Positions 14,974 to 20,319 of a stretch of DNA of 45,703 nucleotides are shown piece after piece. The notes beneath the pieces were generated by a model that saw only the letters and a list, made by a program, of their open reading frames with translations, did not search any database and had not been told where the DNA came from. This DNA comes from Methanosarcina sp. (GTDB taxonomy: Archaea; Halobacteriota; Methanosarcinia; Methanosarcinales; Methanosarcinaceae): contig NZ_JAQUVZ010000027.1 in the NCBI RefSeq assembly GCF_028693135.1, positions 1-45,703 on the forward strand. The letters are read 5' to 3'. Position 1 is the stretch's first letter, and the number at the start of each line of letters is the position of its first letter. A program made the translations under genes and the position numbers.

Positions 14974-15750
14974 TTATTCCTGGATTGTGTTTATGACATT
15001 TCTGCGTGCGAGGAAACCAACCAGGTCTTCTTCCAGATTCAGGACAGGGACGCCTCCGAGATTGCGTTCCAGCATGGTATTAACTGCATCTGCAAGAGGG
15101 GTGTTGGTGTACACACTGACCACGCTGCGGGTCATAATGTCCCCAACAAGCAGGTTTTTGATTCTGGAATCCTGCTGGTTGTCGGCTACCAGGTCCCTGA
15201 AAGAGCGCATCGCAAAAGCGATGTCTTCTTCTGCAATGATGCCGACAAGCTTTCCATTTTCAATTACCGGCAGCCTTCCCACGTTCTCATCAAGGATAAG
15301 GTGTCTGGCGTGGCTTACACGGTCTGAGGGACTGACAGTGATAGGGTTTTTTTCCATCACTTCCCCGGCAAAGCCTGTGAAACGGTTTGTTTTCATGAAC
15401 TCTTGTGGGGTCACCCATCCCATTGCGTTTTCATTCTCCATGACAATGATCACGCCTCCGTTCTTTTTAATCAGGGTGAGGGCATCTTTAACATCGGTAT
15501 CTGGCAAAACCTTTACAAAGTTGTCGGATACGGCTGTTGCAACATGCAAAGAGGATGCAGGTTTGCTCAGTTTCCTTCGAGTTCCGAGCTGCTCTGTCAG
15601 ACTTCTCATGGTAAGTAGACCGAGAACCTGGTTGTCATGCACTACCAGCAGGCGCTTTGTATCCTTTTTTTCCATGAGATCAAGGGCGTGAGATATGGTG
15701 TCTGACTTATCAATTTTGTGTGGTTGTACCATTATGTCTTTAACTTGCAT
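14974..15750 (-). CDS. Four-CBS-domain protein (CBS-A)
   Basis: The protein consists only of four CBS motifs, i.e. two Bateman modules: [11 protein letters not shown] (~res 3), [17 protein letters not shown] (~80), [16 protein letters not shown] (~130) and [16 protein letters not shown] (~205). Each ends with the usual G-hydrophobic-(T/A)-x-x-(D/E/R) strand-helix turn. Such modules bind AMP, ATP, SAM or related ligands and usually regulate a partner. The second motif is the most divergent. The start ATG 15750 (258 residues) is preferred over GTG 15759 because GAGGTG lies six bases upstream of the ATG. It is the last of five consecutive CBS genes. Ligand and partner are unknown. Confidence 0.88.
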
Positions 15751-16117
15751 GCATTTCACCTCATGCGTATCAGAGTTTTAGTTTCAATTTTTCGCAACTT
15801 TCGTTTTTACAGACCTTAATGCATCAGCTTTTCAAAATTTCTGTTTCGCATCCTTCTTTTGCTTTCAGCCATCCTTTTATGTTCTTTTTTGCTGTACATA
15901 CCTCCGTACCATACCTGCTGTCGTGAACTTACTGTTATAGTTAATTACTTCTTACCTTTTTAGAGGTACTATAGTTAATTACTTCTTACCTTTTTAAAGG
16001 TACTTTGCTCTTCTTTTGCATTCAATTTTTACTGGATTCCATTTCTGTTTGCTGGATTCCATTTCTGTTTGCTGGATTCCATTTCTGTTTGCTGGATTCC
16101 ATTTCTGAATCCACTTT
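15751..16117. repeat. Gap between CBS-A and CBS-B with two tandem arrays
   Basis: A ~35-bp unit beginning TATAGTTAATTACTTCTTAC occurs twice (15936-16002). A 20-bp unit, CTGGATTCCATTTCTGTTTG, is repeated four times (16032-16108), ending within about ten bases of the CBS-B stop codon. The CBS-A promoter must lie here or further upstream; no clear TATA box was fixed. No gene is visible. Confidence 0.85.
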
Positions 16118-16963
16118 TCAGAGCACGGATTTCATAATATCGGTCCTGCTAATTATTCCTACTATTTCTTCACCATCAATGACAGGCAGGGCCGTTACCT
16201 CTTCTTCAATCAATTGTTTTGCAGCATCGCTAATTTTTTTGTTTACATCAATGGATATTATTGGAGAAACCATGATGTCTTCAGCTGTTAAAGGCACTTC
16301 TTTTACATATCTGTAAGTTTTCTGACCTCCAGGCGAAGATTTACGGGCTAGCTTGATGCTTTTTGTTGAAAGTTTGCCTTCATTATCAGTTAATAGGTTC
16401 AAAGCAAGGCTCTGTCTTGAGATTATTCCCACAGGTTTTCCTGCATCGTCTTTAACGATAACTCTTTCGATCTCGTTTTTGTTCATTTCGTCTATCACAT
16501 GGTTGATTGTGTGATGCCTGTGAACAGAAATGACATCTTCAGTCATCATTTTTGGGATCTTTGTATCCATTTCTTCCGAATGTTCAGCAACATAGCGCAC
16601 GATATCTGTCCTGGTGATAATACCTACAATATCATTTTTTACCACCGGAATGTCATGCACTCCGTTCTCAAGCATTAAAGTGGTTGCCTGGGAAATGGAG
16701 GCTTCGGGATAAATGGTGATTACGGATTCTGTCATCAGCAACTTGATTGGGATCTGATCTATAGGCCGTCTCCTCCAGAGGGGTTCGGCTTGAGCCAGAC
16801 GGTTGCTGAGGTCTGATTTCGTGACGATTCCCACCATTTTGCCCTCGTTAAGGACAAGCAACGTACTGATTCTGTATTTTAACATCAGTTTTCTTGCATG
16901 TGACACGGGTTCATCTACGTTTATGACGTACACAGGTGAACTCATGATGTCCGCAACATTCAT
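16118..16963 (-). CDS. Four-CBS-domain protein (CBS-B)
   Basis: This 281-residue protein has four CBS motifs starting at about residues 3 ([16 protein letters not shown]), 75 ([16 protein letters not shown]), 135 ([16 protein letters not shown]) and 225 ([16 protein letters not shown]). Three of the repeats end in GI(V/I)(T/S)(K/R)(S/T)D(L/I), the classical CBS end where the Asp contacts the ribose of bound nucleotide; the third ends GIISRQSL and lacks that Asp. A basic linker ([19 protein letters not shown], ~195-215) separates repeats 3 and 4. ATG 16963 is well supported by AAGGAGGT seven bases upstream. A TATA-like TTATATATTG lies about 25 bases upstream of the start, so transcription may begin close to the start codon or at a second upstream site. 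Ligand unknown. Confidence 0.9.
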
Positions 16964-17415
16964 TGAATACCTCCTTCATTTTTACAATATATAAGTATTA
17001 ACAATTATAGTTTTTGAATCAAATGTAAACTTTACAATTTTCAGCTGTAAATCTTGATATTTTTCATAACTTCTGCCTATTATCAGCTGTAAATCTTGAT
17101 ATTTTACATAACTTCTGCCTATTTCCTGTAAGCCTTGTGTTAGCCTTGTATATGTACAGATTAATTGGGAATGTCGTCCAGTTAAAGCATCTTTCTAATC
17201 TCTGTTTTAAGACCAGCTACGCTCCGAGATACAAGATAAATCTAGAATACAGAGTTTATTCTGGTCTGTCCAGCCAGGAAGTTTGCCTCCTTTCCCAAAC
17301 TCTTTAACTCCAGCCCGGATCTTTTTCTGGATCTTTTCCGGACTTCAGTTTGGCTTATTTAGCTCTGTTTCAGTTTAGCAGAAGGTTTAGCAGAAGTTTG
17401 ATTCAAAACTCCTGT
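16964..17415. repeat. Gap between CBS-B and CBS-C with a 42-bp direct repeat
   Basis: TCAGCTGTAAATCTTGATAT followed by TTTTCATAACTTCTGCCTAT forms a unit of about 42 bp present twice (17041-17122). The rest is AT-rich and shows no gene. The first ~40 bases contain the CBS-B promoter elements on the minus strand. Confidence 0.75.
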
Positions 17416-18807: not shown

Positions 18808-19602
18808 TCACTCAGACCATACGTTGGTGAGGGATTCCAGGAGGTCCTGCCTGTCAACGATTCCGGATATTTTACCCTGCTCATTTACTACAGTAACTCT
18901 TCCGATATCATGCCTGATAATCATTTCAATCGCACTCTTAACGGAATCGTTTTCTGAGAGAGTATACGCAGGAGTTGACATAATCTTTTCAACTTTGGGA
19001 CTTTCGTTTGGCCTTGTTGCCCGTTCGTCTTCTCTGGACATCCTCAAAATGCCTGATTTAATTATATCTCTTCTTGTTATCATCCCGATGGGATCGCCCT
19101 TCTTTGAAACTACAGGAATACCGGTATAATCCGTCTCTATCATATAATCCCAAATCTTGGAGATCCTTTCATCCGGCGAACAGGTTTTGACTTTTTTTGT
19201 CATAACCGTTTCTATGGGTTTCAAAACACTTTTTGGAAGATCCACTTTTTTGAGAATATCAACATCACTCAGGACACCTACAACCGTATGGTCTGTTGTT
19301 GATTTGATAACTGGAACTCTGTTCTGTTTCGATTGCACCATTAATTTTGCAGCTTTCACAACATCCATATCTGGAGTTACTGTCGGGGATTGCCTTGCAT
19401 ATCCGCCTACCGTAACATCCGAGCGTGTGGACGTAATTTTCATGATATCCTGGTCATTCAGCATTCCCACAAGCCTGTTTTCCTCATCAACAACAACAAG
19501 ACCTCGAAGTAAGTAATCACGCATCATTTGGCGGGCATGAGTTATAAAATCCCCATCTTTGACACTTATAGACCCTTCTGTCATAATCTCGCTAACATTC
19601 AT
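18808..19602 (-). CDS. Four-CBS-domain protein (CBS-D)
   Basis: This 264-residue protein is built of four CBS motifs: [16 protein letters not shown] (~3), [17 protein letters not shown] (~66), [16 protein letters not shown] (~130) and [18 protein letters not shown] (~200). The closing elements [24 protein letters not shown] and GIVDRQDL all keep the Asp that usually contacts the ligand ribose. A charged linker ([15 protein letters not shown], ~183-198) separates repeats 3 and 4. ATG 19602 is well supported by GGGAGGT six bases upstream. It lies only 87 bases downstream of CBS-E, so the two are probably cotranscribed. Ligand unknown. Confidence 0.9.
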
Positions 19603-19689
19603 TGTTTACCTCCCTGTGCTTTTTTTAAGACAGATAAAGACGACAGATAAAGACAGATAATTTGAAAGTCGAGATTTCAAGCACGTGAT

Positions 19690-20319
19690 TCATTCGTAAT
19701 CCTCCCCTTCTGCTTGCCGACAGTTTTCGCATAAGTATCTGCCGTCCACTAATTTCAGGTCTACTGAATGATAAGAACAGGACTCACATATTCCTGCACT
19801 GTAGTCTTCTTCAATCTCCTCAATTGAAGGACTGGAGAGGAGAGCTTCCCGGTTCATATCAATAAGATCCTTGAGTATGGTACTGAGCCCGGGTGTTACC
19901 ATCAGGATGTCGGTGTGAGAAATAATTCCTATAATTGTACTGTCTTCCAGGACTGGCAACCTTTTAATATTGGCTTTCAACATAATTTCGGAGGCTTTTA
20001 TTACGCTTGTTTCAGGTTCAACAGTTACCAGAGGGGTGGAAAGGATTTTGCCCGCATTCACCTTGCTGGGTTTTCTGTCTTTTGCAATGATGTCCCTAAC
20101 AAGGTCCCTTTCAGTTATGATCCCCATGGCCTTTTCGTTTTCTGTAATAATTACGCTTCCGACATTGTGTTTGACCATTTCCCTTGCAATTGCAGGAATA
20201 TCTGTGTTAATGTCCATTGTGATGACTGTTTTATTCATCACTTCAGCAACAGAGACTTCTTTCTCAATTTCCCTGTTGTGAATATCAGTACCTGTTTCCC
20301 TTTCAGGTTCATCAACCAT
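19690..20319 (-). CDS. Two-CBS-domain protein with C-terminal zinc ribbon (CBS-E)
   Basis: This 209-residue protein has two CBS motifs, VAEVMNKTVITMDINTD (~24-80) and AGKILSTPLVTVEPET (~88-145), followed by a helical linker. The C-terminal zinc ribbon (~177-200) has the pattern CESC ... CENC with ~16 residues between the pairs. CBS plus zinc ribbon is a known architecture in archaea. It suggests a nucleotide-sensing unit joined to a nucleic-acid or protein-binding knuckle, though function here is inferred. ATG 20319 follows GGGAG at nine bases. It is the first gene of the five-gene CBS run and probably heads a CBS-E/CBS-D operon. The short acidic tail (EGEDYE) after the ribbon is also notable. 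Confidence 0.88.
   Translation of the reverse strand: MVDEPERETGTDIHNREIEKEVSVAEVMNKTVITMDINTDIPAIAREMVKHNVGSVIITENEKAMGIITERDLVRDIIAKDRKPSKVNAGKILSTPLVTVEPETSVIKASEIMLKANIKRLPVLEDSTIIGIISHTDILMVTPGLSTILKDLIDMNREALLSSPSIEEIEEDYSAGICESCSYHSVDLKLVDGRYLCENCRQAEGEDYE

What the first reader, a model, noticed from the sequence alone, without database searches (positions are those of the whole stretch)
14974..20319. Five consecutive CBS-domain genes (18 CBS motifs)
Five stand-alone CBS proteins in a row on one strand, four with four motifs each and the last with two plus a zinc ribbon, is an unusual concentration. The proteins differ strongly in sequence, so this is not a recent amplification. Most have their own long upstream region, suggesting separate control. 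They may form hetero-oligomers or sense different ligands, and no effector enzyme is encoded within the run.
Basis: partly seen in the sequence, partly recalled or inferred. Interest (0 to 1): 0.75.

Follow-up and report, generated by a model that had tools for sequence, protein, structure and literature searches.

The report
Archaeal ribosome-hibernation gene array (Sri)
Five neighbouring genes in a methane-making archaeon form an ancient cluster, four of whose proteins have relatives caught sitting on ribosomes in published structures; the fifth gene and a neighbouring RNA-repair enzyme look like overlooked members of this ribosome-storage system.

Summary
In detail: five minus-strand CBS genes with 4+4+4+4+2 motifs, 18 of the genome's 41 CBS motifs. 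The run is already explained in large part. The four 4-CBS proteins are orthologues of SriA, SriB, SriC and SriD, chains of Methanosarcina acetivorans 70S ribosome structures 9ZNF, 9ZNG and 9ZNI. The run matches the 'CM-5/4/1/2 cluster' of Madru et al. 2026. Best reading: a ribosome-hibernation array whose discs plug vacant sites, like the fused factor Dri cut into parts.

Two things my searches did not find in print. (1) The upstream 2-CBS zinc-ribbon gene is a constant fifth member: all five genes stand in order in 31 of 40 phylum-wide loci and 32 of 60 order genomes. It is strongly acidic, keeps its nucleotide sites best, and is doubled within one ORF in 6 of 30 genus genomes. (2) An Rnl3-type RNA ligase is the sixth gene: neighbours in 39 of 41 order genomes holding both ligase and SriD.

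The parts
19690..20319 (-). Gene 1 (script letter E): 209 aa, CBS pair + C-terminal zinc ribbon, acidic (net -17); constant first gene of the array
18808..19602 (-). Gene 2 (script letter D): 264 aa, four CBS; orthologue of 9ZNF chain 4 (SriA by gene order); Dri-N / CM-5 type
17416..18417 (-). Gene 3 (script letter C): 333 aa, four CBS; orthologue of 9ZNF chain 5 (SriB by gene order); MJ1225-like, CM-4 by cluster order
16118..16963 (-). Gene 4 (script letter B): 281 aa, four CBS with a basic loop between CBS3 and CBS4; orthologue of 9ZNI chain 6 (SriC); Dri-C / CM-1 type
14974..15759 (-). Gene 5 (script letter A): 261 aa, four CBS; orthologue of 9ZNG/9ZNI chain 7 (SriD); CM-2 by cluster order
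12583..13755 (-). Gene 6: ATP-dependent RNA ligase of the Pab1020 / Rnl3 family (PF18330, TIGR01209), conserved 3' neighbour of the array
13992..14783 (+). AIM24-family gene on the opposite strand, between gene 5 and the ligase only in Methanosarcina-type loci
16961..17020 (-). Block before gene 4 conserved in 14 Methanosarcina-type loci (AT-rich TATA-like stretch and AGGAGGT); promoter and ribosome site inferred
20600..20629 (-). TATA-like block about 300 nt before gene 1, present in most of the Methanosarcina-type loci aligned; promoter inferred

Best explanation
The run is a ribosome-hibernation array. Each 4-CBS protein folds as a disc that sits in vacant tRNA/mRNA sites of an idle 70S ribosome, blocking it and shielding it until growth resumes. 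Genes 2 and 3 (SriA, SriB) act as one pair; genes 4 and 5 (SriC, SriD) act as another. Gene 2 resembles the N half of Dri (large subunit) and gene 4 the C half (small subunit), so I infer that each pair covers both subunits, like Dri cut into separate parts. Gene 1 probably works as a homodimer that makes a fifth disc; being acidic and keeping both nucleotide sites, it is more likely an adenylate-sensing regulator or partner of the other discs than another rRNA clamp. The RNA ligase probably seals RNA breaks in stored or restarting ribosomes or tRNAs. Shown by others' structures: ribosome binding of the four orthologues. Shown here: orthology, gene order, conservation. Inferred: subunit sites, blocking and shielding by these copies, the roles of gene 1 and the ligase, nucleotide control.
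For: Full-length matches to chains 9ZNF_4 (3e-145), 9ZNF_5 (6e-200), 9ZNI_6 (8e-160) and 9ZNG_7/9ZNI_7 (7e-152). The same entries carry a uL2 sequence that this genome's uL2 matches end to end. Their titles say M. acetivorans 70S with SriA and SriB, with SriD, and with SriC and SriD. A single-contig 5.75-Mb genome in the set (G060) has the same gene order, and its gene-2 and gene-5 proteins contain the 102-residue PDB fragments exactly. Gene 2's profile has Dri as next-best chain (N half), gene 4's has Dri (C half). Madru et al. (PMC13324472, sections 11, 13 and 28 read) describe a CM-5/4/1/2 cluster, with CM-1 and CM-4 in dormant ribosomes. Joint absence of genes 2 and 4 in two of three family-f27 loci fits their statement on CM-5/CM-1. 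Gene 1: adjacency, within-ORF doubling, site aspartate in 84 of 84, charge. Ligase.
Against: No protein of this species was seen on a ribosome. No chain like gene 1 is in those entries; that could mean absence from the ribosome or simply that it was not added. Three of the chains (9ZNF_4, 9ZNF_5, 9ZNG_7) carry six residues more at the C-terminus than the gene or than 9ZNI_7, which may be a tag, so 9ZNF and 9ZNG may be reconstitutions rather than native complexes (inference from lengths). The paper describing the Sri structures was not found, so binding sites and translation assays are unseen. Several lineages keep only part of the array, so members are not strictly interdependent.
Confidence: 0.92

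Rival explanations
1. Stand-alone AMPK-gamma-like adenylate sensors that control metabolic enzymes; ribosome binding is secondary.
For: Gene 3 is of the MJ1225 type (E 2e-64). Genes 1, 3 and 4 keep several T/S-x-x-D sites.
Against: All four 4-CBS orthologues are chains of ribosome entries; most of these sites are lost in gene 5 and altered in gene 2; no metabolic enzyme travels with the array, while an RNA ligase does.
Confidence: 0.06
2. Gene 1 is simply a fifth ribosome plug (a homodimeric disc with zinc ribbons touching rRNA), not a regulator.
For: Kept beside gene 2 in most arrays; doubled in one ORF; the doubled protein's low-confidence model aligns to the SriD and SriA discs at Z 22.1 (rmsd 3.7, 243 aligned) and 20.5 (rmsd 4.0, 244 aligned); zinc ribbons often bind RNA (general knowledge).
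Against: Net charge -17, family median -12, against near 0 for the four 4-CBS families; absent from the Sri entries; missing from one Methanosarcina genome that keeps genes 2-5.
Confidence: 0.35
3. The array, or gene 1, is a transcription regulator set like the 4-CBS factor HhpR of Pyrococcus yayanosii.
For: CBS discs can be transcription factors (HhpR/CM-3, cited in PMC13324472).
Against: The four families are found with ribosomes; Madru et al. place HhpR in CM-3, and their cluster is made of CM-5/4/1/2. Gene 1 was not tested against CM-3.
Confidence: 0.05
4. The RNA ligase and RNA-repair neighbours are only leftovers of an old gene neighbourhood without functional link to the Sri proteins.
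For: The ligase is missing beside the array in many families (26 of 40 wide loci) and from all 14 family-f3 genomes sampled; a partner proposed in print is HARP (PMC12153264, passages).
Against: 39 of 41 order genomes with both genes keep them adjacent across four families, and five further families show it.
Confidence: 0.4

Closest known systems
SriA, SriB, SriC, SriD of Methanosarcina acetivorans (PDB 9ZNF, 9ZNG, 9ZNI)
   Same: Full-length orthologues (84-91% identity to the G060 genes by blastp); same gene order in G060, very probably M. acetivorans
   Different: Only sequences and entry titles were seen, no paper; the entries hold nothing like gene 1, and whether they hold the ligase was not examined
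CM-5/4/1/2 cluster (Madru et al. 2026, PMC13324472)
   Same: Four CBS-module families in the same order; environmental methanogens; proposed ribosome hibernation
   Different: Its main text has no occurrence of zinc, ribbon, ligase or operon, and its search set aside most 2-CBS proteins; here the array is 5 CBS genes plus often an RNA ligase
Dri of Pyrobaculum calidifontis (9E6Q, 9E7F)
   Same: Gene 2 resembles its N module, gene 4 its C module
   Different: Dri is one chain of two modules; here the modules are separate proteins, with two more 4-CBS families and gene 1
HibA (P. abyssi)
   Same: 4-CBS module on idle ribosomes
   Different: No HPF/RaiA domain in any of the five proteins
MJ1225 (3KH5/3LFZ), archaeal AMPK-gamma-like protein
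   Same: Gene 3 aligns over its full length
   Different: Described in the PDB title as a putative gamma-AMPK homologue, not as a ribosome factor
Ta0289, CBS-rubredoxin-like protein (1PVM, 2QH1)
   Same: Gene 1 shares a CBS pair plus a small metal-binding C-terminal domain
   Different: About 19% identity; no array context known from these calls

Membership tests
Sri / CM-5,4,1,2 ribosome-hibernation array | One orthologue of each of the four ribosome-bound 4-CBS proteins | tested here: met
   four single clades
Sri / CM-5,4,1,2 ribosome-hibernation array | Gene order CM-5, CM-4, CM-1, CM-2 on one strand | tested here: met
   Order confirmed; gene 2 = CM-5 and gene 4 = CM-1 by Dri halves; gene 3 = CM-4 and gene 5 = CM-2 only by elimination and order
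Sri / CM-5,4,1,2 ribosome-hibernation array | Proteins bind 70S and stop translation | not testable with these tools
   Only orthologues' entry titles
Dri | Two 4-CBS modules in one chain | tested here: not met
   Separate ORFs in the window; in genome G053 genes 3 and 4 are one 633-aa ORF, a different pair from Dri's
Dri | Homology to Dri N and C modules | tested here: met
HibA | CBS module fused to HPF/RaiA domain | tested here: not met
   Pfam shows CBS only
AMPK-gamma-like adenylate sensor | Nucleotide-site T/S-x-x-D retained (motif recalled) | tested here: inconclusive
   Gene 1 CBS1 and CBS2: D in 84 of 84; gene 3 mostly; gene 5 well kept only in CBS3 (89 of 92); no ligand tested
CBS + zinc-ribbon/rubredoxin-like proteins (Ta0289 type), gene 1 | CBS pair plus four-cysteine C-terminal metal site | tested here: met
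   Invariant C178, C181, C197, C200 in 42 sequences; CBS pair fold Z 18.7 (rmsd 1.5, 125 aligned) and 18.6 (rmsd 2.2, 134 aligned) to 1PVM and 2QH1; metal not tested
Rnl3 / Pab1020 RNA ligase (gene 6) | PF18330 and TIGR01209 above cut-off | tested here: met
   (145.3 vs 25 bits; 394.8 vs 136.9 bits)
HhpR / CM-3 transcription factor | CM-3 sequence clade and DNA binding | not tested
   No CM-3 sequence was brought into a tree

The most novel reading that the evidence does not exclude
The Sri locus is a complete ribosome storage-and-restart module: four plug proteins working as two pairs, an acidic adenylate-sensing CBS-zinc-ribbon dimer (gene 1) that gates or strips the plugs according to AMP/ATP, and an RNA ligase (with RtcA and Tpt1 nearby in Methanosarcinaceae) that repairs RNA of stored ribosomes or tRNAs before translation restarts.
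Probability: 0.25. Interest if true: 0.8.

Novelty: new member of a known kind. Interest (0 to 1): 0.5.

Why it matters
How archaea store and restart ribosomes is only now being worked out. This locus ties that process, by gene order kept across a phylum, to two parts not mentioned in the text I could read: a fifth CBS protein with the best-kept nucleotide sites, and an RNA ligase whose biological role is open. Both give direct, cheap genetic tests in M. acetivorans or M. mazei, and the array shows how one idea (a CBS disc in a vacant ribosome site) was used as separate proteins, pairs and fusions.

Tried and rejected
Own-genome search for PF02482 (HPF/RaiA) found nothing, but the H. volcanii control was also negative although H. 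volcanii has a CBS protein with such a domain (HVO_2384, PMC12607858 passages). The search therefore cannot exclude HibA.

No tRNA and no Rfam family in the window; the long intergenic regions hold no known RNA family.

TTCCANTGGAA palindromes upstream of gene 1, with near-matches before gene 3, were considered as an operator of the array, but similar sites lie elsewhere in the window; not pursued.

The doubled gene-1 protein was folded to see a disc: mean pLDDT 64, pTM 0.55, too low to trust the arrangement. The single protein folds well (pLDDT 80.7). Its Foldseek and VIA lists are generic CBS pairs and barely test the zinc ribbon.

NCBIfam names for the CBS proteins (PrdR, IMP dehydrogenase and so on) are all far below cut-off and were rejected as shared CBS domains.

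Nissley et al. 2025 (Dri) is not held and is known to me only through PMC13324472 and PMC12607858. Searches for the Sri structures' paper by entry code and by protein name found none. Passages of PMC12605026 (M. acetivorans ribosome) and PMC12918454 hold no mention of CBS.
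Full report
Naming. Genes are numbered in the direction of transcription (minus strand): gene 1 = 19690-20319, gene 2 = 18808-19602, gene 3 = 17416-18417, gene 4 = 16118-16963, gene 5 = 14974-15759, gene 6 = 12583-13755. My scripts called genes 1-5 E, D, C, B, A and gene 6 LIG.

Observation. Pfam finds only CBS in each, with 2, 4, 4, 4 and 4 stretches for genes 1-5. The 4.22-Mb genome has 41 CBS matches; 18 are here. The zinc-ribbon gene is the first, not the last, gene of the run.

What the proteins are. A sequence search of solved structures gave full-length matches of genes 2, 3, 4 and 5 to chains 9ZNF_4, 9ZNF_5, 9ZNI_6 and 9ZNG_7/9ZNI_7. 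Ribosomal protein uL2 of this genome matches one distinct sequence carried by 9ZNF, 9ZNG and 9ZNI among others. A structure comparison printed the entry titles: M. acetivorans 70S ribosome with SriA and SriB (9ZNF), with SriD (9ZNG), with SriC and SriD (9ZNI), released 2026-01-28. The gene-5 orthologue is chain 7 of both 9ZNG and 9ZNI, so gene 5 is SriD and gene 4 SriC. Gene 2 = SriA and gene 3 = SriB is inferred from gene order. A single-contig 5.75-Mb genome in the sample (G060) has the same order, and its gene-2 and gene-5 proteins contain the printed PDB fragments; it is very probably M. acetivorans. So the array of this Methanosarcina is orthologous to a ribosome-bound set.

Print. Madru et al. 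2026 (PMC13324472; abstract, sections 11, 13 and 28 and passages read) define six families of 4-CBS modules, report a CM-5/4/1/2 cluster in environmental methanogens and clustering in 10% of archaeal genomes, place Dri as a CM-1/CM-5 fusion, and call CM-2's role unresolved. Profile searches put gene 2 next to the N half of Dri (9E6Q residues 59-207) and gene 4 next to the C half (434-633). With the order, the run is CM-5, CM-4, CM-1, CM-2; genes 3 and 5 are assigned by elimination. Gene 5 on ribosomes (9ZNG, 9ZNI) would answer the CM-2 question if the assignment holds. The same text has no occurrence of zinc, ribbon, ligase or operon. I found no paper using the Sri names or the entry codes in that sense.

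Conservation. In one sample of 60 genomes of the order, matches at the thresholds used were: gene 1 in 55, gene 2 in 46, gene 3 in 55, gene 4 in 58, gene 5 in 58. Reading coordinates from those calls with the loci, genes 1-5 are contiguous in order on one strand in 32 of 60 (one more is cut by a contig end), genes 3-4-5 in 55 of 60, and genes 4-5 in 58 of 60. Family f3 (14 genomes) keeps 3-4-5 together with genes 1 and 2 elsewhere or unmatched; genus g6 (3 genomes) has no gene 3 at the threshold and has gene 2 elsewhere. In the phylum, 106 of 236 genomes have gene 5 at E<=1e-25. I fetched 40 loci around it, chosen for family spread: 31 of 40 hold all five genes in order. Of the nine others, three (family f7) keep only 4-5, two (f27) keep 1-3-5, and the rest lack one to three genes. 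Joint absence of genes 2 and 4 in those f27 loci fits the print statement that CM-1 and CM-5 are both absent from some methanogens. Each 4-CBS family is one clade in a 67-row tree from 16 chosen loci and the window.

Gene 1. It is in 29 of 30 genus genomes; the exception keeps gene 2. In 6 of 30 genus genomes it is doubled inside one ORF of 421-422 aa, both copies keeping the cysteines. Since a CBS pair needs a partner to make a 4-CBS disc (general knowledge), I read this as a homodimer made permanent; the model of the doubled protein aligns over both copies to SriD's disc (Z 22.1, rmsd 3.7, 243 aligned) but its confidence is low (pLDDT 64). Both nucleotide-site aspartates are kept in 84 of 84 sequences, the best of the five families, whereas gene 5 keeps one of four sites well (89 of 92). 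Net charge is -17 here and -12 at the family median (87 sequences), while the four 4-CBS families sit near zero. No chain like it is in the ribosome entries. I therefore favour a regulator or partner over a fifth rRNA clamp, without proof.

Gene 6 and flanks. The next gene on the same strand is an Rnl3-type RNA ligase. It occurs in 42 of 60 order genomes; of the 41 that also have gene 5, 39 keep it next to gene 5, with only the opposite-strand AIM24 gene between in Methanosarcina-type loci. It is absent from all 14 f3 genomes sampled. Among the 40 wide loci, 14 have it, from families f1, f6, f15, f22, f30 and f34. RtcA (25477-26544) and Tpt1 (24700-25353) lie upstream in the window; RtcA is seen in 12 wide loci of this family and beside genes 4-5 in the three f7 loci. 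In Thermococcus kodakarensis an Rnl knockout lost C/D-box RNA circularisation and changed rRNA fragments (PMC9014305, passages); Rnl3 is reported to co-occur with the protein-only RNase P HARP (PMC12153264, passages). RNA repair during storage or restart is my inference.

Control of expression. Gaps in 14 Methanosarcina-type loci are 64-354, 270-467, 243-817 and 161-452 nt, and blocks before genes 1 and 4 are conserved in all or most of them. Outside that group neighbouring ORFs mostly abut or overlap. Separate control is therefore plausible for Methanosarcina and unlikely for the ancestral state.

Natural fusions. In genome G053 a second array has genes 3 and 4 in one 633-aa ORF and no gene 5: a Dri-like two-module protein of a different pair.

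Verdict. The finding is real and its core is a recently recognised system, not a mystery. What remains new to my searches is the constant fifth gene and the linked RNA ligase.

Noticed in passing
24700-25353 (+) and 25477-26544 (-): Tpt1/KptA RNA 2'-phosphotransferase and RtcA RNA 3'-phosphate cyclase near the array; RtcA also sits beside genes 4-5 in family f7 loci L177-L179.
   Followed up: partly
11107-12180 (-): EF-Tu/SelB-like protein with a weak GTP_EFTU_D2 match, downstream of the RNA ligase in many Methanosarcinaceae loci that reach that far.
   Followed up: partly
L135:2547-4445 (genome G053, contig C5): Genes 3 and 4 fused in one 633-aa ORF in a second array lacking gene 5.
   Followed up: partly
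L155, L156, L157, L158, L159, L160: Gene 1 doubled head to tail in one ORF of 421-422 aa.
   Followed up: yes
2317, 5557, 18730, 20783, 20961 and others: TTCCANNGGAA: 13 strand-wise matches in the window against 0.8 expected; two perfect TTCCACTGGAA palindromes upstream of gene 1.
   Followed up: no
16028-16127: 20-nt unit repeated about four times between genes 4 and 5.
   Followed up: no
L132 (G060), gene 5: The PDB SriD sequence starts 13 residues before the GTG start used here; the window's frame has only 6 residues before that GTG, so the annotated start may be wrong.
   Followed up: no
L136 (genome G004): The RNA ligase gene next to the array is split into two frames with several stops, perhaps a pseudogene or assembly error.
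   Followed up: no
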